Shown here: positions 2,903 through 44,071 of the stretch, in pieces
Numbering within the stretch: the stretch's first letter is position 1
How the letters are laid out: every line of letters starts with the position of its first letter
Assembly (NCBI RefSeq): GCF_900606115.1
Contig: NZ_UWPJ01000005.1
Location: forward strand, 124,001 to 188,000
DNA length: 64,000 nt
Direction: 5' to 3'
DNA from: Pigmentiphaga humi
Lineage (GTDB): Bacteria; Pseudomonadota; Gammaproteobacteria; Burkholderiales; Burkholderiaceae_B
Notes under the pieces: model-generated
What the model was told of the DNA's origin: nothing
Databases searched by the model: none
What the model saw: the letters and a program-made list of their open reading frames with translations, nothing else
Position numbers and translations under genes: made by a program

Positions 2903-2980
2903 GCCCCCCCCTACGCGCTTCGCGCGCGCCCCGGGGGCAAAACTGGCGGACTGGCGAAGCCAGATCCGCGGTTTTCTGGG
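2903..2980 (+). repeat. intergenic hairpin element, copy 1
   Basis: It begins immediately after the stop codon of the flavoprotein gene. A C-tract plus CTACGCGC and a GC hairpin are followed by a 37-nt hairpin at 2939-2975 with outer arms AAAAC / GTTTT, middle arms GCGGA / TCCGC and inner arms CTGGC / GCCAG around a GAA loop. It shares its layout with the copies near 15.7, 20.0, 25.8, 36.0 and 44.0 kb. It lies between convergent genes. Confidence 0.75.
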
Positions 2981-3029
2981 GCTATGCGCGCTGCGTTGAA
3001 GGGGGGGTCCTCCTGCCCAGCCCGCTCGT

Positions 3030-3977
3030 TCAGCGGCTGGCGTGGTCCAGCAGGGACAGGGCGTCCGCGTCCAGTTTCAGGTTGGCGGCGGCTTGGAGGG
3101 AGTCCAGCTGGGCTTCGGAAGTCGCGCTGGCGATGGGCGCCGTCACCGCCGGCTGGTGCAGCAGCCAGGCCAGGGCCACGGCGGCCTGGGTCGTGCCCAG
3201 GCGCGACGAGACCTGGTCCAGCGCCGCCAGGATGGCCATGCCGCGCTCGTTCAGGTAGCCGCCCACGCGGCCGCCGCGGGCCTTGCCTTCCAGGTCGGCG
3301 GCGGTGCGGTATTTCCCGCTCAGGAAGCCGCTCGCCAGCGCGTAGTAATTGATCACCGCCAGGCCGTTCCGCTGTACCACCGGCGCAAGATCGGTCTCGA
3401 AAGCCTGGCGTTCGACCAGGTTGTATTCGGGCTGTAGCGTGGCGTAGGCCGCCAGGCCGTTAGCCCGGCTCACGTCGAGCGCCTGCTGCAGCCGCGCGCC
3501 CGAATAGTTGGAGGCGCCGATGGCGCGCACCTTGCCCGCGCGGACCAGTTTGTCGAACGCCTCGAGCGTGGCTTCCAGCGGCGTGTCCGGATCGTCGCGG
3601 TGCGCCTGGTAGAGGTCGATATAGTCGGTCTGCAGGCGCTTGAGCGACCCTTCCACCGACTTGGCGATATAGGCCGGATCCAGCCCGCCCTGGCTGCCCA
3701 GCGCCGGCGTCCCGACCTTGGTGGCCAGCACCACGCTGTCGCGCTTGCCCGAGCGCTTGAGCCATTTGCCGATCAGCGCCTCGGACTCGCCGCCCTGGTT
3801 GCCCGGCACCCAGCGCGAATAGGCGTCCGCCGTGTCGATGAAATTCATGCCGCGCTCGGCCAGCGCATCCAGGATCCGGAACGACGCCGCCTCGTTCAAG
3901 GTCCAGCCGAATACGTTGCCGCCGAAGGCGACGGGAAACACCTGCAGCCCGGTCGTGCCGAGCGGTCGATAAGTCAT
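3030..3977 (-). CDS. aldo/keto reductase
   Basis: A 315-residue NADPH-dependent oxidoreductase with the (alpha/beta)8 barrel of the aldo/keto reductase superfamily. The catalytic Asp51 and Tyr53 are visible in FIDTADAY, the lysine strand is VVLATKVG and the histidine is in LYQAHRDD. The sequence resembles the YajO/Tas-like stress-oxidoreductase branch, whose natural substrates are usually unknown. The gene stands alone between convergent and divergent neighbours. Hairpin element copy 1 lies just beyond its 3' end. Confidence 0.88.
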   Translation of the reverse strand: MTYRPLGTTGLQVFPVAFGGNVFGWTLNEAASFRILDALAERGMNFIDTADAYSRWVPGNQGGESEALIGKWLKRSGKRDSVVLATKVGTPALGSQGGLDPAYIAKSVEGSLKRLQTDYIDLYQAHRDDPDTPLEATLEAFDKLVRAGKVRAIGASNYSGARLQQALDVSRANGLAAYATLQPEYNLVERQAFETDLAPVVQRNGLAVINYYALASGFLSGKYRTAADLEGKARGGRVGGYLNERGMAILAALDQVSSRLGTTQAAVALAWLLHQPAVTAPIASATSEAQLDSLQAAANLKLDADALSLLDHASR

Positions 3978-4053
3978 GGCTGCCTCTGCGGAAAAAGAGT
4001 GGAGAACCCCGACGATAGCAGGGAGCGGGGCGCTCGCCCGTCTCCTGCTTTCC

Positions 4054-4551
4054 TTATGCGGCGGGCGGCGTCTTGATTTCCTTGATCATCTGCTGGCGCC
4101 GCTCCATCTCCTGGCGCAGTTCGCGCCGCAACTGCGCCGCCTCGAAGCGCTGGCGCTCTTCCGCGGTCCGCGGCTGGAGCGGCGGAACCGCGGCCGGGAC
4201 GCCGTCGTCGTCCACCGCCACCATCGTGAAGTAGCAGCTATTGGCGTGGCGCACGGATTTATTGCGGATGTCCTCGGCGACGACCTTGATGCCGATCTCC
4301 ATGGACGTGCGGCCGGTGTAGTTGACCGATGCATAGAAGGTCACCAGCTCGCCGACGTGGATGGGCTGGCGGAACATGACCTGGTCCACCGACAGCGTGA
4401 CGACGTAGCGGCCCGCGTACCGGCTGGCACAGGCGTAGGCGACCTGGTCCAGGTACTTGAGAACGGTGCCGCCGTGGACGTTGCCCGAAAAGTTCGCCAT
4501 GTCGGGCGTCATCAGGATGGTCATGGAAAGCTGGTGCTGGGAATCGTTCAT
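4054..4551 (-). CDS. acyl-CoA thioesterase, hot-dog fold
   Basis: A 165-residue single hot-dog domain of the YciA/BACH-like type, which hydrolyses acyl-CoA esters. The diagnostic stretch NFSGNVHGGTVLKYLDQVA is present at about residues 21-39. The last 30 residues form an Arg/Glu/Gln-rich helix (RRELRQEMERRQQMIKE), common as a C-terminal tail in this group. The start at 4551 (MNDSQHQ) is preferred because the longer upstream reading frame is only shadow sequence of the divergent gene at 4682. It is probably a housekeeping gene; the acyl chain preference cannot be read from sequence. Confidence 0.87.
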   Translation of the reverse strand: MNDSQHQLSMTILMTPDMANFSGNVHGGTVLKYLDQVAYACASRYAGRYVVTLSVDQVMFRQPIHVGELVTFYASVNYTGRTSMEIGIKVVAEDIRNKSVRHANSCYFTMVAVDDDGVPAAVPPLQPRTAEERQRFEAAQLRRELRQEMERRQQMIKEIKTPPAA

Positions 4552-4681
4552 GGCGCACCCGCGCGCGAAATGGGATGCGGAAATTGTAGCCGCCGCGATG
4601 GCGTAAGATGGGCCGCTGCGGCCCGGATTCCGGGGCGCTCCCCGCGCCGGCAGGATCCGGTGCCCACAGCAAGGAAGGATC

Positions 4682-5518
4682 ATGACGTCACCGACACTCG
4701 CCATCCTACATCCCGGCGCCATGGGCGCCGCCGTCGGCGCCAGCCTGCGCGCGGCCGGCCGCCGCGTGGTGTGGGCCAGCGCGGGCCGCAGCGCCGCCAC
4801 CGTGCAGCGCGCCCAGGCCGCCGGGCTGGAAGACCTGGGCACCCTGGAAGCGGCGGTCCGCGCCGCCGACATCGTGTTCTCCATCTGCCCGCCGCACAAT
4901 GCCGTCGACCTGGCGCGCACGGTGGCAGGGCTCGGCTTTCGCGGCATCTATGCCGACGCCAACGCGGTCTCGCCCTCCACCGCGCAGGAGATCCGCGCCG
5001 TAGCCGAAGGCGCGGGCGCCCGCTTCCTGGACGGCGGCATCATCGGCCTGCCGCCGCGCAAACCGGGCACCACCCGGCTGTTCCTGGCCGGCCCGGACGC
5101 CGCCGCCACGGCGGCGCTGTTCGAGGGCGGCCTGCTGCACGCGGTCGCGCTGGACGGGCCGCCGGGCAGCGCATCGGCGCTGAAGATATGCTTTGCCGCA
5201 TGGAGCAAGGGCTCGACGGCGCTGCTGGGCGCCATCCGCGCCCTGGCGCGGCACGAAGGGGCCGAGCAGGCGCTGCTCGCGGAATGGGAACGGACCAATC
5301 CCGGCCTGGTGGCGCGCTCAGAAGAAATCGCGCAGAAGGCCGAAAAAGCCTGGCGTTGGGTGGGAGAAATGGAAGAAATCGCGGCGACGTTCCGTCAGGC
5401 CGGGCTGCCGGACGGCTTCCACCTCGCGGCGGCGGACATCTATACCCGGCTCCAGCCCTACAAGGATGCGGAGCAGGCGCCGCCCATGGATGGCGTGGTG
5501 GAGCGGCTGCTCAAATAG
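4682..5518 (+). CDS. NAD(P)-binding dehydrogenase of the 6-phosphogluconate dehydrogenase type
   Basis: A 278-residue protein with an N-terminal Rossmann fold (LHPGAMGAAVGASL, residues 8-21) like beta-hydroxyacid dehydrogenases, and a C-terminal helical domain of the DUF1932 type (from about residue 165, SASALKICFAAWSKG). Members of this group are annotated as 6-phosphogluconate dehydrogenase-like, but their reaction is mostly untested. AAGGA a few bases ahead of the ATG supports the start. Its last 8 bases overlap the convergent histidine kinase gene. It shares a promoter gap of about 130 bp with the divergent thioesterase. Confidence 0.82.
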   Translation: MTSPTLAILHPGAMGAAVGASLRAAGRRVVWASAGRSAATVQRAQAAGLEDLGTLEAAVRAADIVFSICPPHNAVDLARTVAGLGFRGIYADANAVSPSTAQEIRAVAEGAGARFLDGGIIGLPPRKPGTTRLFLAGPDAAATAALFEGGLLHAVALDGPPGSASALKICFAAWSKGSTALLGAIRALARHEGAEQALLAEWERTNPGLVARSEEIAQKAEKAWRWVGEMEEIAATFRQAGLPDGFHLAAADIYTRLQPYKDAEQAPPMDGVVERLLK

Positions 5519-6911
5519 CCATCGGCAGGTGGAGGCTGACCAGCAGGCCGCCGCCGGGGCGCAGCGCCGCCTCGGCCCGTCCGCCATGGCGGCGCATCGC
5601 GGCAGCGGTGATCGCCAGCCCCAGCCCGGTTCCGCCGCTCTCGCGGTCGCGCGCATCGCCGAGACGGAAGAACGCTTCGAACAGATGCGGCAAGACCGCC
5701 GCGGGCACGCCCGGCCCGCGATCGGCCACGGCGATGCGCAGGGTGCCGTCGGCTTGCGTCAGCGTCACGTCCACCTCGCCTCCCCGCGGCGAAAAACGCA
5801 GCGCGTTGCGCAAGACATTGTCGAGCGCGCTCGCCAGTTCCGCCCGGTCCGCGCGCACGGCGGCTGCGCTGTCGCAGCCGGCAGCCCGGATCCGGAGTTG
5901 CTTGGCCTGCGCCTCGAAACGGGCATTTTCCACCACTTCGCGCACCAGCTCGCCCAGCACGACGTCCTCCATTTCATGCGGCGGCTGGCCGCGCAGCCGG
6001 GCGACCTCCAGAATCTGCCCGATCATCTGGTCGAGCCGCTCGCACTCCCGCTCGATGCGGTCGAGCTGCGTCGCCTGGCGCGGTCCGCCGCGGCGCGCCA
6101 GGTCGAGCGCGACGCGCAGCCGGGCCAGCGGCGAACGCAATTCGTGCGACACGTCGCGCAGCAGCCGCTCTTTGAGCACCACCAGCCCATGGATGCGATC
6201 GGCCATGGTGTTGAAATCGCGCGCCAGCATGCCGAGTTCGTCGCTGCGCCTGTCCAGCCCCGGCTCCGCCCTCGCGGCCAGGTCGCCGAAGGCCAGCTTG
6301 CGCACGCCGTCGCGCAGCAGGCCGACCGGGCCGCTGATGTTGCGCGCGAGCAGCCAGCATATCGGGGCGCTCACCGCAAAGCAGAACAGCAGTAAGAACC
6401 ACGAAGTCTGGGGATGATCGAATACGTCCAGCTCGGAAAGCGCAAAAGGATCGAACAAAAGCTCGTAGCGGGTGCCGTCCTCCAGTACGATCCGCCGAAT
6501 GTTCCACCAGGATGGGCGATAGGCCGACGCTTCGGACGGCGGCTCGGCGGTCGCCTCGGCACGCTGTTGCGCCTGGGCTATGCGCAAGGGGGCGCGGGCG
6601 CGGTAGAAGCCCAACCTGTCGGCGCTCAGCGCCGACAGGGTCTGCCCCGCGATCTCGCGGTCCTGGGTGTCGACGATGTACGCGCCCAGCGCCGGATGGC
6701 GCCGATGGAGCCGCAGCACCCATTCGCGCAGGGCCGCCTCGCCCTGGAGCGCCGCGGCGCGCGCCTCGCGCGTGAGATCGTCGGGATTGACGTCGTAGAG
6801 CTTCTTGACGTGGTAGGCCAGCACGGTCCCGACGATTGCCATGCCGCCCGCGAGAATCAGCCCCATCGCGATCCAGAACGACAGGAAAATCCTCAGGAAC
6901 AGGGACTTCAC
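5511..6911 (-). CDS. sensor histidine kinase, CpxA/OmpR-system type
   Basis: A 466-residue inner-membrane kinase with two membrane segments (about 7-33 and 171-189) flanking a periplasmic sensor of about 135 residues, then HAMP (about 190-245), the phospho-acceptor His256 in RDVSHELRSPLARL, and an ATPase domain with GGTGLGLAI. The wording around the histidine is typical of CpxA-like kinases. It starts with GTG at 6911, and its start overlaps the stop codon of the response regulator gene (GTGA), so the two are translationally coupled. The pair lies back to back with a TonB receptor operon. The signal is unknown; envelope stress or metal is plausible. Confidence 0.92.
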   Translation of the reverse strand: MKSLFLRIFLSFWIAMGLILAGGMAIVGTVLAYHVKKLYDVNPDDLTREARAAALQGEAALREWVLRLHRRHPALGAYIVDTQDREIAGQTLSALSADRLGFYRARAPLRIAQAQQRAEATAEPPSEASAYRPSWWNIRRIVLEDGTRYELLFDPFALSELDVFDHPQTSWFLLLFCFAVSAPICWLLARNISGPVGLLRDGVRKLAFGDLAARAEPGLDRRSDELGMLARDFNTMADRIHGLVVLKERLLRDVSHELRSPLARLRVALDLARRGGPRQATQLDRIERECERLDQMIGQILEVARLRGQPPHEMEDVVLGELVREVVENARFEAQAKQLRIRAAGCDSAAAVRADRAELASALDNVLRNALRFSPRGGEVDVTLTQADGTLRIAVADRGPGVPAAVLPHLFEAFFRLGDARDRESGGTGLGLAITAAAMRRHGGRAEAALRPGGGLLVSLHLPMAI

Positions 6912-7678
6912 GCCTTGCCCGCCAGCAGCATGTAGCCGAGGTTGCGCAGGCCGCGGATCGCGGGCGCGCCGGCGCCCGCCGCGGCCTGCCGCAGCTTGCG
7001 GCGCAGGTTGCTGACATGGGTGTCGAGACTGCGGTCGTAGGCTTCCAGCTGGCGGCCCAGCGCGGCCTCGGTCAGGTGCTCGCGCGTGACCGCCGTGCCG
7101 GCATGGCGCATCAGTATCTCCAGGACGCGCAGTTCGGCCGAGGTCAGCGCCAGCGGCCGGCCATCGACGAACGCCTGCTGCACCTGGGGCAGCAGGCGCA
7201 GCGGCCCGATCGCCAGGCCGGCCTCGGCCTGCGGCGCGCGGCCGGCCGAGCGGCGCATGACGGCGCGCATGCGCGCCAGCAGCTCGGCGGGGCTGAAAGG
7301 CTTGCAGACATAGTCGTCGGCGCCGGACTCCAGCCCCTGGATGCGGTCTTCCTGCGCGCTGCGCGCAGTCATCATGATGACCGGCGTATCGCACGAGCGC
7401 CGCACCTGCCTGAGCACCTCGAACCCGGACATGCCCGGCAGCATCACGTCCAGCAGGACCAGGTCGAAGTCGCGCTGCGCCAGCAGGCCGGCCGTTGCCG
7501 TTCCATCCTGCGAGAAATGCAGGTCGAAGGGCTCGTCGGCGAAGAATTCGGCCAGCATCTGCGCCAATTCGGCGTCGTCATCGGCCAGCAGGACGGCCGG
7601 CTGCGCATGGACCTGCACGGCGTCGGCGGAAAAAGTTCCGCCTGAAGGCAGTCCGCCTGGATGTGGCCTGTACCGCAC
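6908..7678 (-). CDS. OmpR-family response regulator, CpxR-like
   Basis: A 256-residue regulator with a receiver domain (about 26-140, phospho-acceptor Asp77 in LVLLDVML, acid pocket DDD at 33-35) and a winged-helix DNA-binding domain (about 155-255, ending in NLRRKL...GYMLL). The usual methionine-free N-terminus would suggest a start near residue 21. However, AGGGAGGA lies about 6 nt upstream of the GTG at 7678, so that start is chosen and gives a 20-residue polar leader. It is the first gene of the two-component operon. Its promoter must lie in the same gap as the Fur box at 7779-7797. Confidence 0.92.
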   Translation of the reverse strand: MRYRPHPGGLPSGGTFSADAVQVHAQPAVLLADDDAELAQMLAEFFADEPFDLHFSQDGTATAGLLAQRDFDLVLLDVMLPGMSGFEVLRQVRRSCDTPVIMMTARSAQEDRIQGLESGADDYVCKPFSPAELLARMRAVMRRSAGRAPQAEAGLAIGPLRLLPQVQQAFVDGRPLALTSAELRVLEILMRHAGTAVTREHLTEAALGRQLEAYDRSLDTHVSNLRRKLRQAAAGAGAPAIRGLRNLGYMLLAGKA

Positions 7679-7778
7679 AGTTCCTCCCTATTTATCCAAA
7701 GATAGCCAAAGAAACGTCAAGAAATCCAAAGATCCAAACCTTGATGCCGGATCGTGGTCGCCGGGCAATTATAGTCAA

Positions 7779-7797
7779 TAGCAATCATTCTCATTCA
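7779..7797. promoter_or_regulatory. Fur box
   Basis: Read on the minus strand, GAATGAGAATGATTGCTAT closely follows the Fur consensus of repeated GATAAT hexamers. It sits about 95-110 bp ahead of the TonB receptor start and about 100 bp upstream of the divergent response regulator. Iron repression of the receptor operon is expected; an effect on the two-component genes is possible. Confidence 0.65.
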
Positions 7798-7890
7798 TTC
7801 CCTCGATACATGCCCGATCCTGGCTTGCGCAGAAACCGGGCAGCTTGCCACAAACCTCCCATGACCCACGACTCCTTCCCGGCGGCACGC

Positions 7891-10014
7891 ATGTCCCGCA
7901 CCAGCTTATTCGCGTTTTCCACCCTCTGCGCCGCCCTGGCGGCCGGCTTTTCCGCAAACGCCGCGGCCCAGTCCGCCGGCGGCGGCTCGCAAACCCTGGA
8001 CACCGTGGTGGTGACCGCCTCGGGCTTCGAGCAGGACATCAAGGAAGCGCCCGCCTCGATCAGCGTCATCACGCGCGAAGAACTCGAGCAGGGCGCATTC
8101 CGCGACCTGACCGACGCGCTGCGCTCGGTGGAGGGCGTCAGCGTGACCGGCGCGGCGGCGCAGGCCGGCGGCGGCGGGCAGGACATCAGCATCCGCGGCA
8201 TGCCCGGCGCATATACCCTGATCCTGGTCGACGGCAAGCGCCAGAGCACCCGCGAGGCCCGCACCAACGGCAACGCCGGCTATGAACAGGGCTGGATCCC
8301 GCCGCTGGAGGCGATCGACCGCATCGAGGTCATCCGCGGCCCGATGTCCTCGCTGTACGGTTCGGATGCCATGGGCGGCGTGATCAACATCATCACGCGC
8401 AAGGTCGCCACCCGCTGGGGCGGCTCGGTCAAGGTCGACGGCACGCTCCAGGAGCGTTCGAGCGCCGGCAATTCCTACGGCACCAATTTCTACCTGAGCG
8501 GCCCGATCAAGGAAGACATGCTGGGAATTGCCATCTACGGCGGCTATTTCCACCGATCCGAAGACGCCATCGTCAACGGCTTCAACGGCGCCCGCAACTA
8601 CAACCTCAACGGCCGCCTGGCGCTGACGCCGACCCGCGACCACGACATCGTGCTGGACTTCGGCCGCGGCCGCCAGGACAGCATTTATCACCGCGACCAG
8701 TCCGTCAACGCCACCACCGCCTCCACGCGCAGCATGAACGAGCGCGAGAACGTCTCGCTGACGCATACCGGCCGCTGGGGCCAGTGGGGCACGTCCACCA
8801 TCAGCCTGGCCCACGAGCAGGCCTTCCGCCGCAACTTCAACCTCGAAACCGACGCGGTGCCGGCCGACCCCAACGTTCTGCGCAACACCGTGCTGGACGG
8901 CAAGTGGACGCTGCCGGTCAAGAACCACCTGGTCACCCTGGGCGGCCAATACCGCAAGGAAGCCTTCACCGCCAGCAACTACGTCGGCCGCGAATGCATC
9001 CGGACCAATCCGTCCGACCCGTACTATGGCTGCGTCGACGCCAACGGCGATCCGTTCCCCGGCATGCCCAACAACAATAGTTCTTGGCGCGCCGTCAGCG
9101 TGGCCGACGCCAAGCTCTCGACCGTCATGAAAGCGGTGTTCATCGAAGATGAATGGCGCGTCACCGACAAGCTCGCCCTGACCGGCGGCCTGCGCCTGGA
9201 CGACCACGAAGTCTTCGGCCGCGAATGGACGCCCCGCGCCTACGCCGTCTACAACCTGACCGACAACTGGACGCTCAAGGGCGGCGTCTCCAAGGGCTAC
9301 AAGGCCCCCTCCGCGCGCGACATCCTGCCCGGGTACGCGCTGTCCTCGGGCGGCGGCAACGGCGGCGGCTCCATCGTGATCCGCTCCAACCCCGACCTGC
9401 AGCCCGAAACCAGCATCAACCAGGAAATCGGCCTGCAATACGGCGACGGCGGCCGGTTGAGCGGCGGCGTGACGCTGTTCAACAACGATTTCAAGAACAA
9501 GATCACCGAAGTGACGCTGCCCGGCGTGCAAGACCCCAACTTCCCGGGCGCCACCATCCGTTCGCGGGTGAACGTGGGCAAGGCCGTCATCCGCGGCGTC
9601 GAAGGCAACCTGAAGTGGGCGCTTACCGACACGCTTTCGCTGCGCACTACGTATACCTACCTGCGTTCGAAGATCACCGACGATCCGGTCAACGGCCAGA
9701 CCGGCCTGCAACTGGCGGGCACGCCCAAGCAGATCTTCAGCGGCACGCTGGAGTGGAAGCCGAACCAGGCCGTGACCGGCTGGACCCGCGTCTGGGCCTA
9801 CGACAGGCAGATGAAGCTGAACCGCACCAGCGCGGTGCCGACGATGTCGCCGGGATACGTGCAGGTGGACCTGGGCGGCTCGTACCGGGTCAACAAGACC
9901 GTCACGCTGCACGCGGCGATCTACAACCTGGCCGACAAGCGCCTGGACTACGACGTCGCCAACCTGTACCTGGACGGCCGCCGCCTGTGGGTGGGGATGA
10001 ATGTCAACTTCTAA
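7891..10014 (+). CDS. TonB-dependent siderophore receptor
   Basis: A 707-residue outer-membrane receptor that would import a ferric siderophore using TonB energy. It has a signal peptide ending AAAQ (about residue 27), a TonB box TLDTVVVTAS (35-44), a plug domain with RGPMSSLYGSDAMGG, and a beta-barrel ending in WVGMNVNF with the expected terminal Phe. The plug resembles the FepA/Cir/Bfr group of catecholate-type receptors; the ligand is not known. Starts at 7861 and 7810 are also possible, since no site is preceded by a strong ribosome site. A Fur box lies upstream. It is the first gene of a four-gene iron operon. Confidence 0.92.
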   Translation: MSRTSLFAFSTLCAALAAGFSANAAAQSAGGGSQTLDTVVVTASGFEQDIKEAPASISVITREELEQGAFRDLTDALRSVEGVSVTGAAAQAGGGGQDISIRGMPGAYTLILVDGKRQSTREARTNGNAGYEQGWIPPLEAIDRIEVIRGPMSSLYGSDAMGGVINIITRKVATRWGGSVKVDGTLQERSSAGNSYGTNFYLSGPIKEDMLGIAIYGGYFHRSEDAIVNGFNGARNYNLNGRLALTPTRDHDIVLDFGRGRQDSIYHRDQSVNATTASTRSMNERENVSLTHTGRWGQWGTSTISLAHEQAFRRNFNLETDAVPADPNVLRNTVLDGKWTLPVKNHLVTLGGQYRKEAFTASNYVGRECIRTNPSDPYYGCVDANGDPFPGMPNNNSSWRAVSVADAKLSTVMKAVFIEDEWRVTDKLALTGGLRLDDHEVFGREWTPRAYAVYNLTDNWTLKGGVSKGYKAPSARDILPGYALSSGGGNGGGSIVIRSNPDLQPETSINQEIGLQYGDGGRLSGGVTLFNNDFKNKITEVTLPGVQDPNFPGATIRSRVNVGKAVIRGVEGNLKWALTDTLSLRTTYTYLRSKITDDPVNGQTGLQLAGTPKQIFSGTLEWKPNQAVTGWTRVWAYDRQMKLNRTSAVPTMSPGYVQVDLGGSYRVNKTVTLHAAIYNLADKRLDYDVANLYLDGRRLWVGMNVNF

Positions 10015-15680: not shown

Positions 15681-15756
15681 CAGGGGCGCCGCGGATCCGG
15701 CTCCGCCGGTCCGCCAGCGCCGCCCCCTGGGGGCGCGCGTAAGCGCGCAGGTGGGG
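15681..15756 (-). repeat. intergenic hairpin element, copy 2
   Basis: In minus orientation it starts directly after the stop of the NarL-type regulator gene. The 37-nt hairpin is at 15685-15721, with outer arms GGCGC / GCGCC, middle GCGGA / TCCGC, inner CCGGC / GCCGG and a GGA loop. It sits between convergent genes. Confidence 0.75.
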
Positions 15757-18832: not shown

Positions 18833-19930
18833 ATGATCACGATTCCCTTCGACCTGCCGCGCCTGGCCCGCTACGCCGCGGCAGCTTGTATCGCACTGGC
18901 CGTCAGCGCCTGCGGCGGCGGCGACGGTTCGAGCACCCCCGCCGCCGGCAGCGGCGGTTCCGGCGGCTCTGCCGAGACCGTCACCCTCTCCGGCACCGCG
19001 GCCACGGGCGCGCCGGTCAAGGGCGGCACCGTCGTGGCCATCAACGCCAACGGCAACACCGTGGAAGCCAAGACCAAGGACAATGGCGACTACGAACTGA
19101 CGATAGGCTCCGCTCCCCCCTACCTGCTCAAGATCACCACGACCGCCAGCGGTACGCTGTACTCGTTCGCCTCGGCCGGCGGCCGGGCCAACCTGACGCC
19201 GCTGACCACGCTGGCGCTGCACGACGCCAACGGGAAAAAGCCGCTGGCCGCGCTGTTCGAAGGCTGGAAGAGCACGCGCCTGGCCGCCGACGCGGTCACC
19301 GCTGCCGCCAAGCGGGTCAACGCCAACTTCCAGGCAAGCTATACCGCCCAAGGCGTCGACTACAAGACCTTCGATTTCTTCGGCAGCGCCTTCTCCGCCA
19401 ACGGCAAGGGCTTCGACGCGGTGCTCGACGGCATCTCGGTTTCACTGAGCTGCTCGACCAATTCCTGCTCGGAAACCATCAAGGTCGGCGATACGGTCTA
19501 CACCTATAACTTCACGATCGACACCACGGGCATCTCGTTCACGTCCGGCGGCGGCAGCTCCGGCGGCGCGACCTCGACGATCCCGGCCGGATCGACCTGG
19601 GACCTGACCCTGTCTGGCACGGCCAGCGGCCAGTCGATCAACCAGACGATCCAGAACATCGAACTCGCCGCGGTGCCGACCTCGGTCGACGGCGCGCAGA
19701 GCGCGGTCGCGCAGTTCGGCGGCCAGGGCGGCACGGTGACCACTCCCGACATGACCATCAAGTACAACCTCGGCAGCAGCAGCTACCAAGGCTGCGGCAG
19801 CTGCGGCGTGGGCAGCACCATCGTCATGAAGGTCAAGGGCAGCATCACGGTGTCCGGCACGGTCAACGGCTTCCCGGTCAACCAGAGCAGCGACTTCGAC
19901 TACACCTATACCTATAAACGCGTGAAGTAG
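18833..19930 (+). CDS. Gly/Ser/Thr-rich lipoprotein of unknown function
   Basis: A 365-residue exported lipoprotein: a signal peptide with lipobox LAVSAC (Cys27), then a GGGDGSSTPAAGSGGSGGS linker. A domain starting VTLSGTAATGAPVKGGTVVA resembles a carboxypeptidase-like or Ig-like beta-sandwich (about 45-120). Later parts have Gly/Ser-rich spacers and two short cysteine-bearing segments (LSCSTNSC and YQGCGSCGVG). Similar beta-sandwich lipoproteins are common at the outer surface of Burkholderiales, without known roles. GAGGA ahead of the ATG supports the start. Hairpin element copy 3 follows the stop codon. Confidence 0.75.
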   Translation: MITIPFDLPRLARYAAAACIALAVSACGGGDGSSTPAAGSGGSGGSAETVTLSGTAATGAPVKGGTVVAINANGNTVEAKTKDNGDYELTIGSAPPYLLKITTTASGTLYSFASAGGRANLTPLTTLALHDANGKKPLAALFEGWKSTRLAADAVTAAAKRVNANFQASYTAQGVDYKTFDFFGSAFSANGKGFDAVLDGISVSLSCSTNSCSETIKVGDTVYTYNFTIDTTGISFTSGGGSSGGATSTIPAGSTWDLTLSGTASGQSINQTIQNIELAAVPTSVDGAQSAVAQFGGQGGTVTTPDMTIKYNLGSSSYQGCGSCGVGSTIVMKVKGSITVSGTVNGFPVNQSSDFDYTYTYKRVK

Positions 19931-19943: not shown

Positions 19944-20022
19944 GCCCCCCCCTACGCGCTTCGCGCGCCCCCCAGGGGGCGATGCGGGTGGACCGGCGGA
20001 GCCGGATCCACCGCATCCTGGG
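19944..20022 (+). repeat. intergenic hairpin element, copy 3
   Basis: It starts 13 nt after the stop of the lipoprotein gene. The 37-nt hairpin at 19981-20017 has outer arms GATGCGG / CCGCATC, middle GTGGA / TCCAC, inner CCGGC / GCCGG and a GGA loop. The gap 19931-20305 is otherwise filled by three terminator-like repeats. Confidence 0.78.
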
Positions 20023-20051: not shown

Positions 20052-20090
20052 GCCCGGCCTGGCAATCCCCCGGAGGCTGGGCTTTTTTTT
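20052..20090 (+). terminator. Rho-independent terminator, first unit of a tandem set
   Basis: Arms GCCC-GG-CCT and AGG-CT-GGGC are followed by eight T residues (20083-20090). It is the first of three related T-run units in a row downstream of the lipoprotein gene. Confidence 0.7.
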
Positions 20091-25752: not shown

Positions 25753-25826
25753 ACCCAGGAAACCGCGGATCTGGCCCTGCCAGTCCGCCGGTTTTGCCCC
25801 CTGTGGGGGCATAGGGGGGACGGTCT
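25753..25826 (-). repeat. intergenic hairpin element, copy 4
   Basis: In minus orientation it begins directly after the stop of the glutathione transferase gene. The 37-nt hairpin at 25759-25795 has outer arms AAAACC / GGTTTC, middle GCGGA / TCCGC and inner CTGGC / GCCAG around an AGG loop. Confidence 0.75.
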
Positions 25827-35032: not shown

Positions 35033-35977
35033 ATGTCCCGACTGCTCAACAGCCGCCATTTCCAGATCTTCACTACCGTCATGCATAGCCGCGGCATGGC
35101 CGAAGCGGCGCTCAAGCTGGGGATTTCCAAGGCGGCCGTGAGCAAGGCCCTGAGCCTGATGGAGCGCGAGACCGGCGTGGCGCTGTTCACGCTGGCGCGC
35201 GGCAGGCTGGAACCCACCGCCGCGGCCCGCCGCCTGCTGCCGCGCGCCGAGCAGGCCGCCAAGCACCTGGAATGGGCGCTGGACGAAGCCTACACGCTCG
35301 ACCAGGGCTCCGCGCGCAGCGTCATCGTGGCGGCGCACGCGCCGCCGCTGATCGCCATCCTGCCCAGCGCCATCCAGCGTTTTCGCCAGACGCACCCCGA
35401 TGCCAACGTGCACCTGCGCGTAGAGGGGCCGCCCAAGGTGCTGGAGTCGGTCGCCCACCACGAGGTGGACCTGGGCGTCACGAATCCGCCCGCGCCGAAT
35501 ACCGTCAGCGCGGTGGATCTCTGCGAGCGCTACACCATTTCGGAGGAACTGCTGGTCGTGGTCCTGCACCGCCGCCATCCGCTGGTGGCCAAGTCGGTGG
35601 TCCGCCCCGCGGATCTGGTCGATCACACGGTGATCGCGCTGCCCGAAGAGTCGCCCACCTCCAGCCTGGTGCGCGCCACCCTGCAGGAAGCCGGGGTCGT
35701 CCTGCCCAAGAACATCGTCGCCAGCACGTCGATGGGCGTGTGCGCGCTGGTGCAGCAGAACGTGGGCATCGGCCTGATCAATCCCATGCTGCTGTCCACC
35801 GGCATCTTTCCCGACATCGTCACGCGGCCCTTCCGGCCGCGCATCGAGCTGTGGACCGAGATCTACTATTCCTCGATACGGCCGCTGAGCCCCGAGGCGC
35901 GCGCGCTGGCCGACTACATCGAAGAAGCCGCCGCCGCGCTGCGCGGCTATAGGCCGATCCCACCCCCTACCCGCTGA
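35033..35977 (+). CDS. LysR-family transcriptional regulator
   Basis: A 314-residue LysR regulator with the winged helix in the first 65 residues (MAEAALKLGISKAAVSKALSLME) and a two-lobed effector domain. It is divergent from the Bug-dehydrogenase operon, and the shared gap contains an 8-1-8 palindrome, so it probably controls that operon and itself. The ATG at 35033 is used; a TTG at 35024 is less likely. The last few codons (RPIPPPTR) and the stop codon lie inside hairpin element copy 5, so this C-terminus was apparently supplied by the repeat. Confidence 0.92.
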   Translation: MSRLLNSRHFQIFTTVMHSRGMAEAALKLGISKAAVSKALSLMERETGVALFTLARGRLEPTAAARRLLPRAEQAAKHLEWALDEAYTLDQGSARSVIVAAHAPPLIAILPSAIQRFRQTHPDANVHLRVEGPPKVLESVAHHEVDLGVTNPPAPNTVSAVDLCERYTISEELLVVVLHRRHPLVAKSVVRPADLVDHTVIALPEESPTSSLVRATLQEAGVVLPKNIVASTSMGVCALVQQNVGIGLINPMLLSTGIFPDIVTRPFRPRIELWTEIYYSSIRPLSPEARALADYIEEAAAALRGYRPIPPPTR

Positions 35978-36040
35978 CGCGGGCCCCCTCGAGGGGGCGG
36001 CGCCAGCGGACCGGCGGAGCCGGATCCGCGGCGCCCTGGG
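35960..36040 (+). repeat. intergenic hairpin element, copy 5
   Basis: It overlaps the end of the LysR gene and continues between convergent genes. The 37-nt hairpin at 35999-36035 has outer arms GGCGCC / GGCGCC, middle GCGGA / TCCGC and inner CCGGC / GCCGG around GGA. Confidence 0.75.

Positions 36041-38249: not shown

Positions 38250-38253
<4 letters not shown>
37642..38253 (-). CDS. metW: methionine biosynthesis protein MetW
   Basis: A 203-residue methyltransferase-fold protein of the MetW family. The SAM-binding motif [15 protein letters not shown] (about 25-39) and [31 protein letters not shown] (split by the family-specific turn) are diagnostic. MetW works with MetX in homoserine activation in many proteobacteria and is thought to support its activity. 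Its start overlaps the stop of metX (ATGA), so the two are translationally coupled and share the riboswitch upstream. Confidence 0.93.
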
Positions 38254-39482
<1,229 letters not shown>

Positions 39483-39490
39483 GATGGACG

Positions 39491-39547
39491 GAACTCTTTA
39501 GCAGGATTTATCGGGCGCCCGCAAGCGGACCAGGCAAATCGGCGCCA
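39491..39547 (-). promoter_or_regulatory. SAM-II riboswitch
   Basis: Upstream of metX the transcript has P1 arms GGCGCC / GGCGCC (39541-39546 and 39514-39519), the conserved CGATTT after the first arm, GATAAAT (39506-39512) and GCTAAAGA (39495-39502). These match the S-adenosylmethionine-binding pseudoknot of the SAM-II class. The only ribosome-site-like AAAGAG for the metX GTG lies inside the pseudoknot. A likely -10 box TACAAT is at 39562-39567. Confidence 0.85.
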
Positions 39548-39611
39548 ATGAAAGTCTTGGAATTGTAGCACCGCGCCCTCCCGGCCCTGCGGGGGCCCGC
39601 GCCTGGCTGCG

Positions 39612-40391
39612 CTACAGCAAGCCCTGCAGGATGGCCTGCGCCACCGCGGCCTGCTTGTTGTTCACGTTGAGCTTGGCAAAGGCGTTGCCCAGGTGGAAAT
39701 TCACCGTGCGCTCGCTCACGCCGATGATGTGGGCGGTCTCCCAGCTCGTCTTGCCCACCGAGGCCCAGCGCAGGCATTCGGCTTCGCGCGCCGACAGGCG
39801 GGTCCTGGCCTGCGGCGGATCCTCCAGGCGCAAACAGGCGTCGAGCACGAGCGAGGCGGCATGGTGGCACAGGCGCGCCAGGCCGCGCTGCCAGGACAAT
39901 CGGGCGGCGCCCCGGCCGCGCTCGAACAACAATGCGAAACACGCTGCCGTATCGCCCGGCTCGCGCATCTCGGCCACCAGCAGCAGCAGGGAATGGGCGT
40001 CCAGGCGGCGCAATTCTTCCTGGACCCGCCCTTTCGGCAAGTCGTCCACCGTATGCAGGGCGGTCCGGATGGCGCCGCCCACCCCCGGCGCCTGCGGGCG
40101 CAGCAATTGCCGGCACGAGTCGCGGAACGCCCGGCACCAGCCCTGCTCGTCCTCGAACAGGCTATGCACTGTGTTCTGCGCCGGCCCGCGCTCGACGATG
40201 CCGAGCGCATGATGGATCGCGCCGAAAGCCCGCGAGAAATCCCGTACGACCTGGCCGACTTCCTGGAAAGACGAGGCATCCATGAGCGGGCGCAACGCCC
40301 GTAGCGCGCCGACGACCATTTGCTGCTCGTTCCCGGACGGAACCGGCGCGTCGGGGGAAAGCGGCGGAGAAGCGATCGGTGTTCTGGCCAT
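39612..40391 (-). CDS. LuxR-type transcriptional regulator without a cognate synthase
   Basis: A 259-residue protein with a C-terminal LuxR helix-turn-helix (about 190-255, LSAREAECLRWASVGKTSWETAHIIGVSERTVNFHLGNAFAKL broken by family-typical turns). A preceding region of about 160 residues is laid out like an autoinducer-binding domain. No luxI gene is nearby, so it may be a solo regulator, or may not bind lactones at all. A start at 40421 would add ten residues. It lies upstream of metX on the same strand, but the riboswitch and its promoter separate them. Confidence 0.8.
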   Translation of the reverse strand: MARTPIASPPLSPDAPVPSGNEQQMVVGALRALRPLMDASSFQEVGQVVRDFSRAFGAIHHALGIVERGPAQNTVHSLFEDEQGWCRAFRDSCRQLLRPQAPGVGGAIRTALHTVDDLPKGRVQEELRRLDAHSLLLLVAEMREPGDTAACFALLFERGRGAARLSWQRGLARLCHHAASLVLDACLRLEDPPQARTRLSAREAECLRWASVGKTSWETAHIIGVSERTVNFHLGNAFAKLNVNNKQAAVAQAILQGLL

Positions 40392-40533
40392 GCCGCCTGT
40401 CGTGATGATGTCGCGTAACATTCTATGACAGGTAATGTGGATGCGAAACCATCGATTGACGGGCGTGCACCCATTATGTCCGAGTGCTTTCCCGCCAATG
40501 CGCCCGCGGATCGCCGCCCGCCGACGCCCGGAT

Positions 40534-42270
40534 TTACTGGTTCAACAGCGACAGGTCGATTTCCGCGGCACGGTTCAGCGCCGCCGCCACCCTGGTGCGC
40601 AGCGCATTGGAATGCGCCCCCAGGATCTCGCGCTTGACGTCCAGCAATTGCTGCGGATGCATCGAGAACTGGGTCAGGCCCAGACCCAGCAGCAGCCGGG
40701 TCAATTCGGTGTCGCCGGCCATTTCGCCGCATACCGAGACCGGCTTGCCGGAACGCGCGCCGGCGTTGATGGTGTTGGCCACCAGCCTCAGCACGGCCGG
40801 ATGCAGCGATTCGTACAGCCCCGCCACGTCGGGATCGGCGCGGTCGATGGCCAGCGTGTACTGGATCAGGTCGTTGGTGCCGATGGAGAGGAAATCGAAC
40901 GCTTCCACGAAGGGTTCGATGGCGATGGCCACCGCCGGCACCTCCACCATGGCGCCGATCTGGATGTTCTGGCTGCAGGCCTGGCCGCGCACGGTCAGCT
41001 CGTGCCTGGCTGCGGCCAGCGCCGTGCAGGCCGCGCGCGCCTCGCGCAGGTGGGCCACCATGGGGATCAGCACCTTGACCGGGCCGTGCGCCGATGCGCG
41101 CAGGATGGCGCGCAGCTGCGTGGCGAACAGCTCGGGATGCGCCAGGCAATAGCGGATGCCGCGCAGGCCCAGCGCGGGATTGGTCGCCACCGTGGCCTCG
41201 CCGTCCAGTTCTTTGTCGGCGCCGATGTCCAGCGTGCGTATCGTCACCGGCCGGCCCGCCATGGTGCGCACTACCGAGGCATAGGCCTCGTACTGCTCGT
41301 CCTCTCCAGGCAGGTCGTTGCGGCCCATGAACAGGAATTCGCTGCGGAACAGGCCGATGCCCTCGGCGCCGGCCTGCATGGCCGCCTCGGCCTCTTCCGG
41401 CAGCTCGATGTTGGCCAGCATCGAGACCATCACGCCATCCAGCGTGATCGCCGGCACGTCGCGCAGCGCCGCCAGCGTGGCGCGCTCGCGCGCGTAGTCG
41501 GCCTGGCGGGCGCGATACTCGTCGACCACCCGGTCGGGCGGGTTGACCAGCAGCACGCCCTGCTCGCCGTCGACGATCACCACGTCGCCGTCGCGCAGCA
41601 GCGGCCGCGCCACGCCTAGCGCCACCACTGCCGGCACGCCCATGCTGCGCGCCACGATCGCCGTGTGCGAAGTCGCCCCGCCCAGGTCGGTGGCGAACGC
41701 GGCAAAGCGCGCGCCGCGCAGCTTGAGCATGTCGGCCGGGGAAATGTCGTGCGCCACCACCACCAGCGGGTCGCCATGCTCGGCCAGGGTGGAGGCGCGC
41801 AGGCTGCGCGGCTTGCCGTCCGCCTCGGCCAGCGCATGCAGCACGCGCTCGATCACCTGGCGCACGTCGCTGCCGCGCTCGCGCATGTACTCGTCGTCCA
41901 TTTGCGCGAACTGCTCGGCCAGCGCCTGGCCCTGGGCGGTCAGCGCCCATTCGGCGTTGTAGTGGCGGGTGCGGATGATGCCGAGCGGCTCCTGCGAGAT
42001 CATCGCGTCCGCCAGGATCATGCCGTGCACCTGCAGGATGGCGCCCAACTCGCGCGGCACGTCGGCCGGCAAGTGGGATTCCAGGTAGGCCAGTTCATCG
42101 GCGGCCGCGCGGAAAGCCGCCCGCAGCCGCGCGCATTCGGCTTCGACGTCCTCTTCGGCGATCCGGTAGTGCGAAACCTCGAGCGCCGCCGCGCCGATGA
42201 CCACGGCCCGCCCGATGGCGTAGCCGCGCGATACGCCCAATCCGTGCAGGGCCAGCATCGAGGTTTCCAT
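40534..42270 (-). CDS. ptsI: phosphoenolpyruvate-protein phosphotransferase (enzyme I)
   Basis: A 578-residue cytosolic enzyme I that takes phosphate from phosphoenolpyruvate and gives it to HPr. The active His is in GGATSHTAIVARSMGVPAVV. The PEP-binding barrel contains GIGLFRSEFLFMGR, SIGTNDLIQY and the conserved CGEMAGD. Length matches E. coli EI. It is the last gene of gshB-EIIA-ptsH-ptsI, with no sugar-specific membrane component nearby, so the chain probably serves regulation rather than sugar uptake. Confidence 0.95.
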   Translation of the reverse strand: METSMLALHGLGVSRGYAIGRAVVIGAAALEVSHYRIAEEDVEAECARLRAAFRAAADELAYLESHLPADVPRELGAILQVHGMILADAMISQEPLGIIRTRHYNAEWALTAQGQALAEQFAQMDDEYMRERGSDVRQVIERVLHALAEADGKPRSLRASTLAEHGDPLVVVAHDISPADMLKLRGARFAAFATDLGGATSHTAIVARSMGVPAVVALGVARPLLRDGDVVIVDGEQGVLLVNPPDRVVDEYRARQADYARERATLAALRDVPAITLDGVMVSMLANIELPEEAEAAMQAGAEGIGLFRSEFLFMGRNDLPGEDEQYEAYASVVRTMAGRPVTIRTLDIGADKELDGEATVATNPALGLRGIRYCLAHPELFATQLRAILRASAHGPVKVLIPMVAHLREARAACTALAAARHELTVRGQACSQNIQIGAMVEVPAVAIAIEPFVEAFDFLSIGTNDLIQYTLAIDRADPDVAGLYESLHPAVLRLVANTINAGARSGKPVSVCGEMAGDTELTRLLLGLGLTQFSMHPQQLLDVKREILGAHSNALRTRVAAALNRAAEIDLSLLNQ

Positions 42271-42272
42271 GA

Positions 42273-42548
42273 TTACTCGGCCTCTCCGAATTTCTGCGCG
42301 AACAGCGCCTCGATCTGGTCCAGCGCCTCCTGGGCGTCTTCGCCGACCGCGTCCACGGTTACCTTGCTACCCATGCCGGCCGCCAGCATCATGACGCCCA
42401 TGATGCTCTTGGCGTTGACCCGGCGCGCGCCGCGGGCGATGTGGATCTCGCTGCGGAACTTGCTGGCGAGCTGGGTCAGCTTGGCCGATGCCCGCGCGTG
42501 CAGGCCCAGCTTGTTGATAACGGCGATGTCGATGCTCGGCATGGTCAT
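42273..42548 (-). CDS. ptsH: phosphocarrier protein HPr
   Basis: A 91-residue HPr with the phospho-His in KLGLHARASA (His17 from this start, His15 from the next ATG) and the regulatory serine region NAKSIMGVM (Ser48). The serine site is the target of HPr kinase in many betaproteobacteria. The first ATG overlaps the EIIA stop codon (ATGA), so it is chosen; the ATG two codons later is also possible. It lies 2 bp from ptsI. Confidence 0.93.
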   Translation of the reverse strand: MTMPSIDIAVINKLGLHARASAKLTQLASKFRSEIHIARGARRVNAKSIMGVMMLAAGMGSKVTVDAVGEDAQEALDQIEALFAQKFGEAE

Positions 42549-42958
42549 GATTCTTCAGGTTCGCCATCGATACGCAGGATGCCCTGCGTGCCTCCGGCCA
42601 GCGCGCGCTGCGCCAGGTCGTCTAGGGAAAGATGTCGGTACGGCAGGGTTCGCAGCAGCATCGGGACGTTGACCCCGGAGAGCACCGTCACGGCCGCGCC
42701 GCGCCGCGCCGCCGCGCGCGCCGCGCGGCCCGTCTGGTTGGCCGGCGTGGCGCCCACGACGTCGGTCAGCACCAGCACGCCTCCCTCCCCTTCGGCCGAC
42801 TCGATGCGCGCCAGCACCTCCCGGCACAACTGGTCGGGATCCAGGTCGCTCTGCGCGTCATAGGCCACCACGCCCGGCAGTTCCCCGAAGATATGCGTGG
42901 CGCAGGACAGCAGCGAAGAAGCGAGCGGTGCATGCGCCACGATGACTACCCCGGTCAT
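42545..42958 (-). CDS. PTS mannose-family EIIA component
   Basis: A 137-residue soluble EIIA of the mannose/fructose/sorbose family. Phospho-acceptor His9 is in VVIVAHAPLASSLL, and VLVLTDVVGATPANQ is the usual active-site loop. It would accept phosphate from HPr and either modify a regulator or feed an unlinked EIIB/EIIC pair. It is coupled by ATGA overlaps to gshB upstream and ptsH downstream. Confidence 0.9.
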   Translation of the reverse strand: MTGVVIVAHAPLASSLLSCATHIFGELPGVVAYDAQSDLDPDQLCREVLARIESAEGEGGVLVLTDVVGATPANQTGRAARAAARRGAAVTVLSGVNVPMLLRTLPYRHLSLDDLAQRALAGGTQGILRIDGEPEES

Positions 42959-43929
42959 GCGATAGCCGCCTCCGGCCCGGCTACCGCGCGCTCCAGCGCC
43001 TGGGCGAACATCGCGCCGACGTCGAATCCCGTTTGTTCGGTAATTTCGCAGAAGGTGGTCGGACTGGTGACGTTGATCTCGGTCACGTAGTCGCCGATCA
43101 CGTCCAGCCCCACCAGCAGCAGCCCGCGCGCGGCCAGGGTCGGCCCCAGCTCGCGCGCGATCGCCAGGTCGCGTCCGGACAGCGGCCGCGCCTCGCCCCG
43201 GCCGCCGGCCGCCAGGTTGCCGCGCGTCTCGCCGGCCTGCGGAATGCGCGCCAGGCAATACGGCACGGGCTCGCCGGCGATCAGCAGCACCCGCTTGTCG
43301 CCCTGCAGGATTTCGGGAATATAGCGCTGCGCCATGATGCTGCGGTGACCGTCGTCGGTCAGGGTTTCCAGAATGGCATTCAGGTTACGCTCGGCCGGCG
43401 CCAGGCGGAAGATACCGGTTCCCCCCATGCCGTCCAGCGGCTTGACGATGACGTCGTGGTGCTCGGCATGGAAGGCCTTGAGCCGGTCCAGGTCGCGCGT
43501 CACCAGCGTGGGCACCGTCAGGTGGGGGAACTCGGCGATCGCCAGCTTCTCGGGGTGGTTGCGGATCGCCGCCCCCGAATTGAACACGCGGGCGCCTTGC
43601 GCCTCGGCGCGTTCCAGCAGGTGGGTGGCGTACACGTATTCCATGTCGAACGGCGGATCCTTGCGCATCAGCACCGCGTCGAAGGCGGTGAGCGGGAAGT
43701 CGCCGGACGCGCCCTCTTCCCACCAGGCATGGCCGTGCAGGTCGGCGCCCGGCACCAGCGAAACCGGCACCGCGGCCGTGCGCACCGCGCCGTCGATGAC
43801 GTAGAGATCGCCCTGCAGCGCCACGCTCAGGCTGTGCCCGCGCGCGACCAGCGCGCGCATCATGGCCACGGAAGTGTCCTTGTAGGCCTTCAGGCCGGGG
43901 AGCGGATCAACGATGAAAAGTACGTGCAT
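42955..43929 (-). CDS. gshB: glutathione synthetase
   Basis: A 324-residue ATP-grasp ligase that joins glycine to gamma-glutamylcysteine. The family stretches MRKDPPFDMEYVYATHLLERAE, VKPLDGMGGTGIF and NVTSPTTFCEI are intact, and the length matches E. coli GshB. It is the first gene of the overlapping gshB-EIIA-ptsH-ptsI operon, an order conserved in many betaproteobacteria. Confidence 0.95.
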   Translation of the reverse strand: MHVLFIVDPLPGLKAYKDTSVAMMRALVARGHSLSVALQGDLYVIDGAVRTAAVPVSLVPGADLHGHAWWEEGASGDFPLTAFDAVLMRKDPPFDMEYVYATHLLERAEAQGARVFNSGAAIRNHPEKLAIAEFPHLTVPTLVTRDLDRLKAFHAEHHDVIVKPLDGMGGTGIFRLAPAERNLNAILETLTDDGHRSIMAQRYIPEILQGDKRVLLIAGEPVPYCLARIPQAGETRGNLAAGGRGEARPLSGRDLAIARELGPTLAARGLLLVGLDVIGDYVTEINVTSPTTFCEITEQTGFDVGAMFAQALERAVAGPEAAIA

Positions 43930-43995
43930 GGATGGCCTTGACTATCCGCAGAATGCGGATGCGGAAAGAGACACCGATTCTAACAAGAGGAAGGT

Positions 43996-44071
43996 CCCCC
44001 CTACGCGCTGGCGCGCGCCCCCCCGGGGCGAGGCGGGTGGACCGGCGGAACCGGATCCACCGCCTCCGGGG
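43996..44071 (+). repeat. intergenic hairpin element, copy 6
   Basis: The 37-nt hairpin at 44030-44066 has outer arms GAGGCGG / CCGCCTC, middle GTGGA / TCCAC and inner CCGG / CCGG. Unlike the other five, it does not follow a gene on its own strand: it lies upstream of gshB and beyond the 3' end of guaD, both on the minus strand. Confidence 0.72.

What the first reader, a model, noticed from the sequence alone, without database searches (positions are those of the whole stretch)
2903..44071. Six copies of a 37-nt hairpin element with compensatory base changes
Elements at 2903-2980, 15681-15756, 19944-20022, 25753-25826, 35960-36040 and 43996-44071 share one plan: a C-tract with CTACGCGC, a GC-rich mini-hairpin, a 37-nt hairpin (12- and 5-nt left arms, 3-nt loop, 5 nt, one bulged A, 11 nt), then CTGGG. 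The inner arms are CTGGC/GCCAG or CCGGC/GCCGG, and the outer arms differ (AAAAC/GTTTT, GATGCGG/CCGCATC, GGCGCC/GGCGCC, GAGGCGG/CCGCCTC), yet pairing is kept. Covariation across copies implies selection on RNA or cruciform structure rather than simple copying. I do not recognise a named family.
Basis: seen in the sequence. Interest (0 to 1): 0.7.

Follow-up and report, generated by a model that had tools for sequence, protein, structure and literature searches.

The report
Dispersed hairpin repeat at stop codons
A short three-hairpin DNA repeat, present in hundreds of copies in several species of the bacterium Pigmentiphaga and in fewer copies in relatives, often sits just behind the stop codons of genes, where it probably acts as an RNA hairpin; it resembles the known REP repeats, but the transposase that usually goes with those was not found.

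Summary
The six elements are real and belong to a large family: the 20-nt core has 265 exact copies in the 5.1-Mb genome (reversed pattern: 0), which appears to be a Pigmentiphaga. A model of the hairpin matches 65 of 268 family genomes (7 of 43 genera); named hosts include Achromobacter and Bordetella petrii.

It is a REP-like intergenic repeat: C-tract, mini-hairpin, C/G hairpin, then a 37-nt hairpin with a constant bulged A and G. In 828 kb, of 70 copies with a same-strand upstream gene, 43 start 0-15 nt after its stop. Co-directional gaps hold 53 sense and 17 antisense copies. T-tracts are rare and some copies lie inside apparent operons, so it is not an intrinsic terminator. No Y1/RAYT gene was found in the seven element-rich Pigmentiphaga; two Bordetella-group RAYTs lie beside a different repeat.

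The covariation is real but seems to travel largely as blocks: between relatives, 8 of 35 matched copies carry other, still complementary arms (4 of these in gaps whose copy number also differs), while all 15 stem changes in 27 same-arm pairs are one-sided.

Likely role: an RNA hairpin at coding-sequence ends, on a mobile repeat of unknown mobiliser. Identity with Bordetella 'Bor' repeats is untested.

The parts
2903..2980 (+). Element 1 (AAAAC/GTTTT arms); begins at the base after the stop codon of a 3-hydroxybenzoate 6-monooxygenase-like gene ending at 2902
2939..2975 (+). 37-nt hairpin of element 1
15681..15756 (-). Element 2 (GGCGC arms); begins at the base after the stop codon (15757) of a response-regulator-like gene
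15685..15721 (-). 37-nt hairpin of element 2
19944..20022 (+). Element 3 (GATGCGG/CCGCATC arms); begins 13 nt after an ORF ending at 19930; a separate terminator-like site (20069-20081) lies downstream, though such sites are no commoner than chance in that scan
19981..20017 (+). 37-nt hairpin of element 3
25753..25826 (-). Element 4 (AAAACCG/CGGTTTC arms, first mini-hairpin lost); follows the stop (25827) of a GST-like gene and precedes a peptide deformylase gene; flanked by the direct repeat TGCAATA
25759..25795 (-). 37-nt hairpin of element 4
35960..36040 (+). Element 5 (GGCGCC arms); 7 nt after an ORF ending at 35952; the gene finder prefers another frame whose stop lies inside the element (35977)
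35999..36035 (+). 37-nt hairpin of element 5
43996..44071 (+). Element 6 (GAGGCGG/CCGCCTC arms); antisense, between glutathione synthase and guanine deaminase genes (both -), 42 nt beyond the guanine deaminase stop (44114)
44030..44066 (+). 37-nt hairpin of element 6

Best explanation
The elements are copies of a REP-like dispersed palindromic repeat of Alcaligenaceae that can also form BIME-like inverted pairs. Shown here: it is modular, abundant, polymorphic between close relatives, often sits within 15 nt behind stop codons in the sense direction, is rarely followed by a T-tract, and has no RAYT transposase in the element-rich Pigmentiphaga genomes searched. Inferred: when transcribed, the hairpins fold at the end of the coding sequence and act on the mRNA as REPs do, by stopping 3'-to-5' exonucleases (for example after Rho-dependent termination, or inside operons) and/or by slowing ribosomes at the stop codon. 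Also inferred: copies arise through an unidentified mobiliser plus conversion or inversion between copies, which exchanges whole arms while keeping them complementary.
For: 265 exact copies against 0 for the reversed pattern; all 150 scored covariance-model candidates match, E at most 8.8e-11. Position: 43 of 70 copies with a same-strand upstream gene start 0-15 nt past its stop, 11 of them at 0, and 7 more have the stop inside the element; uniform placement in their own gaps predicts 14.7 of 65 against 40 observed. Orientation: 53 sense against 17 antisense in co-directional gaps, p = 1.9e-5. Not a terminator: 5 of 98 have 4 or more T in a row in the next 20 nt; in G003 copies that G007 lacks lie between cysT and cysW and between dapE and prmB; separate terminator-like sites follow 11 of 55 sense copies. 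Structure: pairing kept across 59 distinct hairpins, in 32 aligned ones and in Bordetella and Achromobacter copies; 15 stem changes in 864 bases (1.7%) between 27 same-arm pairs against 5.6% difference between the two genomes. Turnover: 19 of 35 matched gaps differ in presence, number or type, one of them probably by label noise. REPs within 15 nt of a stop stall ribosomes in E. coli (passages of PMC12306157 reporting Liang 2015).
Against: No RNA data were available. The G.T-against-A.C test for RNA-strand selection is flat (35 against 30 at the outer pairs without pair 6-32, counted), so selection on DNA structure is not excluded. The position bias could come from insertion preference. 17 of 70 copies in co-directional gaps are antisense, 8 of 98 lie in divergent gaps, and 18 of 70 with a same-strand upstream gene start more than 15 nt past the stop. 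Gene ends rest on a home-made gene finder. Low stem divergence could reflect homogenising conversion. At least one of the 98 rows is a doubtful copy (L056). Pair 6-32 is often unpaired and one arm subfamily is broken.
Confidence: 0.58

Rival explanations
1. A selfish mobile hairpin with no host role: it lands near stop codons because those places tolerate it or because its mobiliser prefers them, and structure is kept because the mobiliser needs the hairpin.
For: Presence, number or type differ at 19 of 35 matched gaps at 94.4% identity; constant bulged A and near-constant bulged G look like a recognition signal; no strand asymmetry of G.T against A.C at the outer pairs.
Against: Tolerance alone does not predict the 53:17 sense bias or the peak at 0 nt after the stop. 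No mobiliser was found: no Y1/RAYT gene in the element-rich Pigmentiphaga; other transposase families were not searched.
Confidence: 0.27
2. A DNA-level element: a cruciform or protein-binding site used in chromosome structure or recombination.
For: Both strands fold with similar energy; at one inverted pair the two members have exchanged arm types between relatives (L315); inverted pairs recur at set spacings in G003 (partial list).
Against: Tied to the direction of the upstream gene and to its stop codon, which a DNA-only role does not predict.
Confidence: 0.1
3. Intrinsic (Rho-independent) transcription terminators.
For: GC-rich hairpins just behind stop codons.
Against: T-run of 4 or more in only 5 of 98; copies between adjacent co-directional genes that look co-transcribed; 11 of 55 sense copies have another terminator-like site within 150 nt downstream, against 17 of 171 element-free ends.
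Confidence: 0.03
4. A REP family moved by a RAYT (TnpA_REP), as proposed for E. coli and Pseudomonas.
For: Size, irregular palindrome, intergenic place and inverted pairs resemble REP/REPIN (passages of PMC3116915). Four of 18 element-bearing genomes carry one Y1_Tnp gene.
Against: Y1_Tnp was not found in 14 of 18, among them all 7 Pigmentiphaga with 184-265 exact copies. The two Bordetella-group RAYT loci read have a different hairpin repeat beside them, although L361 also holds a truncated 5' module of the present element.
Confidence: 0.03

Closest known systems
REP / BIME elements of E. coli
   Same: Short irregular intergenic palindromes in hundreds of copies, many close to a stop codon: 446 of 4072 predicted REPs within 15 nt in one study, and 260 of 496 proposed to act in translational regulation in another (both as reported in passages of PMC12306157).
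   Different: Modular unit of about 80 nt with three hairpins; no GTAG tag at the 37-nt hairpin; no RAYT found in the element-rich Pigmentiphaga; in this genome mostly single copies (88 of 98 without an opposite copy within 400 nt).
Bor / Bor-1 repeats of Bordetella (Petrillo 2006, 2008)
   Same: REP-like stem-loops close to coding regions in Bordetellae; Bor-1 is 93-117 bp, intergenic and structured (PMC1590033: passages and its section 10; PMC2267715: passages). Our element occurs in Bordetella petrii and some other Bordetella.
   Different: The published consensus is only in a figure that is not held, so identity is untested. Two Bordetella-group genomes carry a second repeat, beside the RAYT, whose size fits the 26-30 bp of Bor as well.
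REPINs of Pseudomonas (Bertels and Rainey 2011)
   Same: Repeated hairpins, some in inverted doublets, dispersed between genes (passages of PMC3116915).
   Different: REPINs are described as doublets tied to a RAYT, with singlets read as remnants; here single copies dominate in the window's genome (about half of the copies in selected G003 stretches are paired), no RAYT was found in the element-rich Pigmentiphaga, and copies still turn over.
Untagged REP-like families (mentioned in PMC3733652)
   Same: Lack the GTAG/CGTC tags; that paper places the Bordetella repeats among them (passages).
   Different: The passages seen give no gene-end statistics or mechanism for them.

Membership tests
REP (tagged, RAYT-associated) | Irregular palindrome of 20-40 nt, repeated, extragenic | tested here: met
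   37-nt hairpin; 98 copies in 828,375 bases; 91 of 93 copies of the first count lie outside predicted genes
REP (tagged, RAYT-associated) | GTAG or CGTC tag at one end of the palindrome | tested here: not met
   CTAC lies before the first mini-hairpin, away from the 37-nt hairpin, and is absent in 3 of 3 B. petrii copies shown
REP (tagged, RAYT-associated) | A RAYT (Y1 transposase) in the genome with the repeat beside it | tested here: not met
   PF01797: no hit in 14 of 18 element-bearing genomes, one hit in each of 4; in 2 of 2 RAYT loci read a different repeat lies beside the gene
BIME / REPIN | Copies predominantly in inverted pairs | tested here: inconclusive
   10 of 98 in this genome have an opposite copy within 400 nt, but 35 of 63 in 20 dense stretches chosen from G003
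Bor / Bor-1 | Match to the published consensus | not testable with these tools
   Consensus only in a figure; no genome named B. bronchiseptica or B. pertussis among the 80 loci
Bor / Bor-1 | Present in Bordetella, intergenic, structured, about 93-117 bp | tested here: inconclusive
   32 matches in B. petrii BT 1 9.2; 6, 4, 1 and five times 0 in eight other named Bordetella
Intrinsic terminator | GC-rich hairpin followed by a T-tract | tested here: not met
   T-run of 4 or more in 5 of 98
Any Rfam 15 family | Score at or above the gathering threshold | tested here: not met
   0 matches in the window; 0 up to E = 1 around element 1
CsrA/RsmA site | Conserved GGA in the loop (motif recalled) | tested here: not met
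   Loop is GGA in 54 of 98, AAA in 21, AGA in 11, GAA in 7, others in 5

The most novel reading that the evidence does not exclude
A family of mobile hairpins that spreads without any RAYT, is placed at stop codons in the direction of transcription by a process linked to the ends of transcription or translation, and evolves by exchanging complete complementary arms between copies, so that covariation arises by block replacement rather than by point mutation.
Probability: 0.22. Interest if true: 0.75.

Novelty: new variant of a known kind. Interest (0 to 1): 0.5.

Why it matters
REP elements are usually explained by a RAYT that copies them. Here is a REP-like family with hundreds of copies, high turnover between close relatives and no such enzyme found in the element-rich Pigmentiphaga genomes, so either another mobiliser exists or conversion and old copies keep it going. 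Its link to stop codons makes a role at mRNA ends directly testable in a GC-rich lineage. It is also a caution: covariation among dispersed copies can be inherited in blocks and should not be counted as independent compensatory change.

Tried and rejected
Intrinsic terminator: rejected. RAYT-moved REP: not supported for this family; one search also found one partial Y1 match in G009, a relative with a single exact copy. Known RNA family: no Rfam match. CsrA site: loop not conserved. RNA-strand selection by G.T against A.C: the overall excess (104:44) owes much to pair 6-32 and to my search pattern, which admits T more freely than A at some core places; the outer pairs without 6-32 give 35:30, so I do not use it. 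Target-site duplication: element 4 has flanking TGCAATA, but the polymorphic sites aligned (4, 7) show no clean duplication and some 'empty' sites may be deletion remnants. Empty sites of elements 1 and 4 in relatives were of little use, as neighbouring genes differ or the relatives are distant. Stop-codon usage (TAA+TAG 26 of 50 next to elements, 243 of 692 in all predicted genes, p = 0.013) is weak.

Rows dropped and known faults; my first filter dropped some GATGC-type copies (corrected). One search lists one diverged G002 copy as empty; one search shows it filled; of 65 copies in 20 G003 stretches chosen for density, 35 were matched, 11 had no match in G007 and 19 could not be mapped; copies in multi-element gaps may be mispaired, hence the per-gap count, which does not report unmapped gaps; the 5'-module letter is rough; one 'type changed' gap (L314:9477) is probably label noise. 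I gave it 32 of the 46 distinct hairpins listed (59 in all), leaving out those with odd ends or doubtful, which favours pairing; there the number of further pair types was below the shuffles (12 against 14.1) and pairs with double change only mildly above (7 against 5.1, 18 of 500). An earlier count gave two operon names from recall that were wrong; one search shows cysT-cysW and dapE-prmB (the name prmB for the L3 methyltransferase is recalled). Paper searches: for core letters, none; by words. I make no claim that the family is absent from print beyond these.
Full report
What was checked. The six stretches hold one element, four on + and two on -. Reading 5' to 3': a C-tract, often with CTACGCGC; a mini-hairpin with a 3-4 nt loop; a C-run/G-run hairpin; a 37-nt hairpin; then usually CTGGG. 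In the 37-nt hairpin there are 7 outer pairs, an unpaired G, 4 pairs, 5 pairs, a 3-nt loop, and on the way back a bulged A between the 5 and the 4. In 95 copies the bulged A is invariant and the unpaired G is G in 94; the 9 inner pairs are kept in 91-95 of 95; the outer pairs in 84-94, except pair 6-32, kept in 53. Copy 4 in the window has lost its first mini-hairpin.

How many and where. The genome appears to be a Pigmentiphaga: its glutathione synthase is 91% identical to that of Pigmentiphaga sp. NML080357, the best of 80 loci kept, and two of the same-genus genomes have the same copy numbers as that strain and P. litoralis. The core pattern has 133 + 132 exact matches in 5,118,913 bases and none when read backwards. 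Of 11 same-genus genomes, the window's own included, seven have 184-265 exact copies, two have 32 and 35, one has 1 and one has none. With a model of the 37-nt hairpin, 65 of 268 family genomes and 7 of 43 genera match at E <= 1e-4, with at most 24 candidates scored per genome. Of 17 named genomes 8 match: B. petrii BT 1 9.2 (32), A. pulmonis (13), Achromobacter Marseille-Q4962 (8), A. ruhlandii (7), Bordetella genomosp. 13 (6), B. ansorpii (4), Bordetella genomosp. 2 (1) and Achromobacter HZ34 (1). Most copies shown there keep the whole plan, some with other arms or another mini-hairpin (GAAGCGC/GCGCTTC) that still pair.

Place relative to genes. I read 828,375 bases of the genome (window plus 40 stretches) with a home-made gene finder and 98 copies. 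70 have a same-strand upstream gene. The C-tract starts 0-15 nt past its stop in 43 (at 0 in 11); the stop is inside the element in 7, and 2 more lie at -34 and -36; 14 start at 16-100 nt and 4 farther. If each copy were placed uniformly in its own gap, 14.7 of 65 would fall at 0-15; 40 do. In co-directional gaps 53 are sense and 17 antisense (p = 1.9e-5); leaving out copies with an opposite neighbour within 400 nt, 52 and 15. Convergent gaps hold 12, divergent gaps 8.

Not a terminator. 5 of 98 have 4 or more T in a row in the next 20 nt. Terminator-like sites occur separately in the next 150 nt in 11 of 55 sense copies, against 2 of 55 shuffled and 17 of 171 element-free ends. In relative G003 one copy lies between cysT and cysW and another between dapE and prmB, where relative G007 has none; in G007 the dapE stop overlaps the next start codon (the overlap is my reading of the alignment). 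That these gene pairs are co-transcribed is inferred.

Covariation and how it arises. Across 59 distinct hairpins, eight variable pairs are paired in 405 of 472 cells, against 326 +/- 6.9 after shuffling arms. On 32 chosen hairpins 93.8% of cells pair against 84.5% shuffled, 61 cells are changed on both sides against 20, and slid versions give 29-41%; two other measures of that test are weak or against (see Tried and rejected). Rows are related, so these are not probabilities. To see events I compared G003 with G007 (94.4% identical over 67.7 kb). In 35 matched gaps the layout is identical in 16, the number differs in 7, the type differs in 6 (one probably label noise) and the element is absent in G007 in 6. 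Counted per copy, 65 copies in 20 dense stretches gave 35 matched, 11 without a match and 19 unmapped. Of the 35 matched copies, 27 keep the same arms, with 15 stem changes in 864 bases, all one-sided, and 10 loop changes in 81 bases; 8 have wholly different arms with 14-16 of 16 pairs formed. Of these 8, four (L302, L310 and both at L315) lie in gaps of equal layout; the other four lie in gaps where the number differs. At L315 the two members of an inverted pair have exchanged arm types. One in-place compensatory pair, C-G in three relatives against T-A in the fourth, was seen. So stems are constrained or homogenised, but the striking arm differences seem to move as blocks. Against strict compensation: the TCTAC/TCTGC left-arm subfamily (5 of 95; two more) has a broken outer stem.

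Mobility and mobiliser. Copies differ between relatives, so they are gained, lost or replaced. Y1/RAYT (PF01797) was not found in this genome or in the other six Pigmentiphaga with 184 or more copies. It is present once each in 4 of 18 element-bearing genomes, all of genus g16. In two of those four I read the locus: the hairpin beside the RAYT is GGTGTCAGGCACC...GGAGCCTGACACC, not this element. E. coli rang as a positive control in both searches. Other transposase families were not searched. No clean target duplication was found at the 11 polymorphic or variable sites aligned.

What it is and does. It works like a REP: a repeated hairpin at gene ends, sometimes inside apparent operons. It is not a tagged, RAYT-associated REP, since both features were tested and not met. 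Bordetella 'Bor' repeats are the nearest named family; identity is open, because the consensus is only in a figure and because the RAYT-linked repeat is a second candidate. The role at mRNA ends is inferred from position, direction, lack of a T-tract and analogy with E. coli REPs within 15 nt of stop codons, which stall ribosomes (passages of PMC12306157 reporting Liang 2015, itself not held). That Rho-dependent ends are trimmed back to hairpins is recalled, not read. A selfish element that merely prefers these sites remains a serious rival.

Noticed in passing
L360 and L361 (G169:C36:41300-42529; G175:C22:1228000-1229400): A Y1 transposase gene of about 230 codons with copies of its own hairpin repeat (GGTGTCAGGCACC/GGAGCCTGACACC type) beside it; in L361 a truncated 5' module of the present element lies next to it.
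   Followed up: partly
L040:9571, L041:13045, L053:12317, L056:3965 and others: An alternative 5' module (a GGGCCCGCC...GGCGCCGGGCCC hairpin) is joined to the same 37-nt hairpin, so modules seem to be exchanged between repeat families.
   Followed up: no
G000 contigs C4, C7, C11, C15, first 130 bases: Several contigs begin within about 130 bases of a copy, so the assembly seems to break at these repeats.
   Followed up: no
window 25753-25826 and flanks: Element 4 is flanked by the 7-nt direct repeat TGCAATA, a possible target duplication.
   Followed up: partly
G003 contigs C1-C7 (partial list): Inverted pairs recur at spacings of about 91, 136 and 218 nt.
   Followed up: partly
G015:C1 and L341/L348: Direct tandem runs of copies at about 80-135 nt spacing in another genus and at 124 nt in an Achromobacter.
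   Followed up: no
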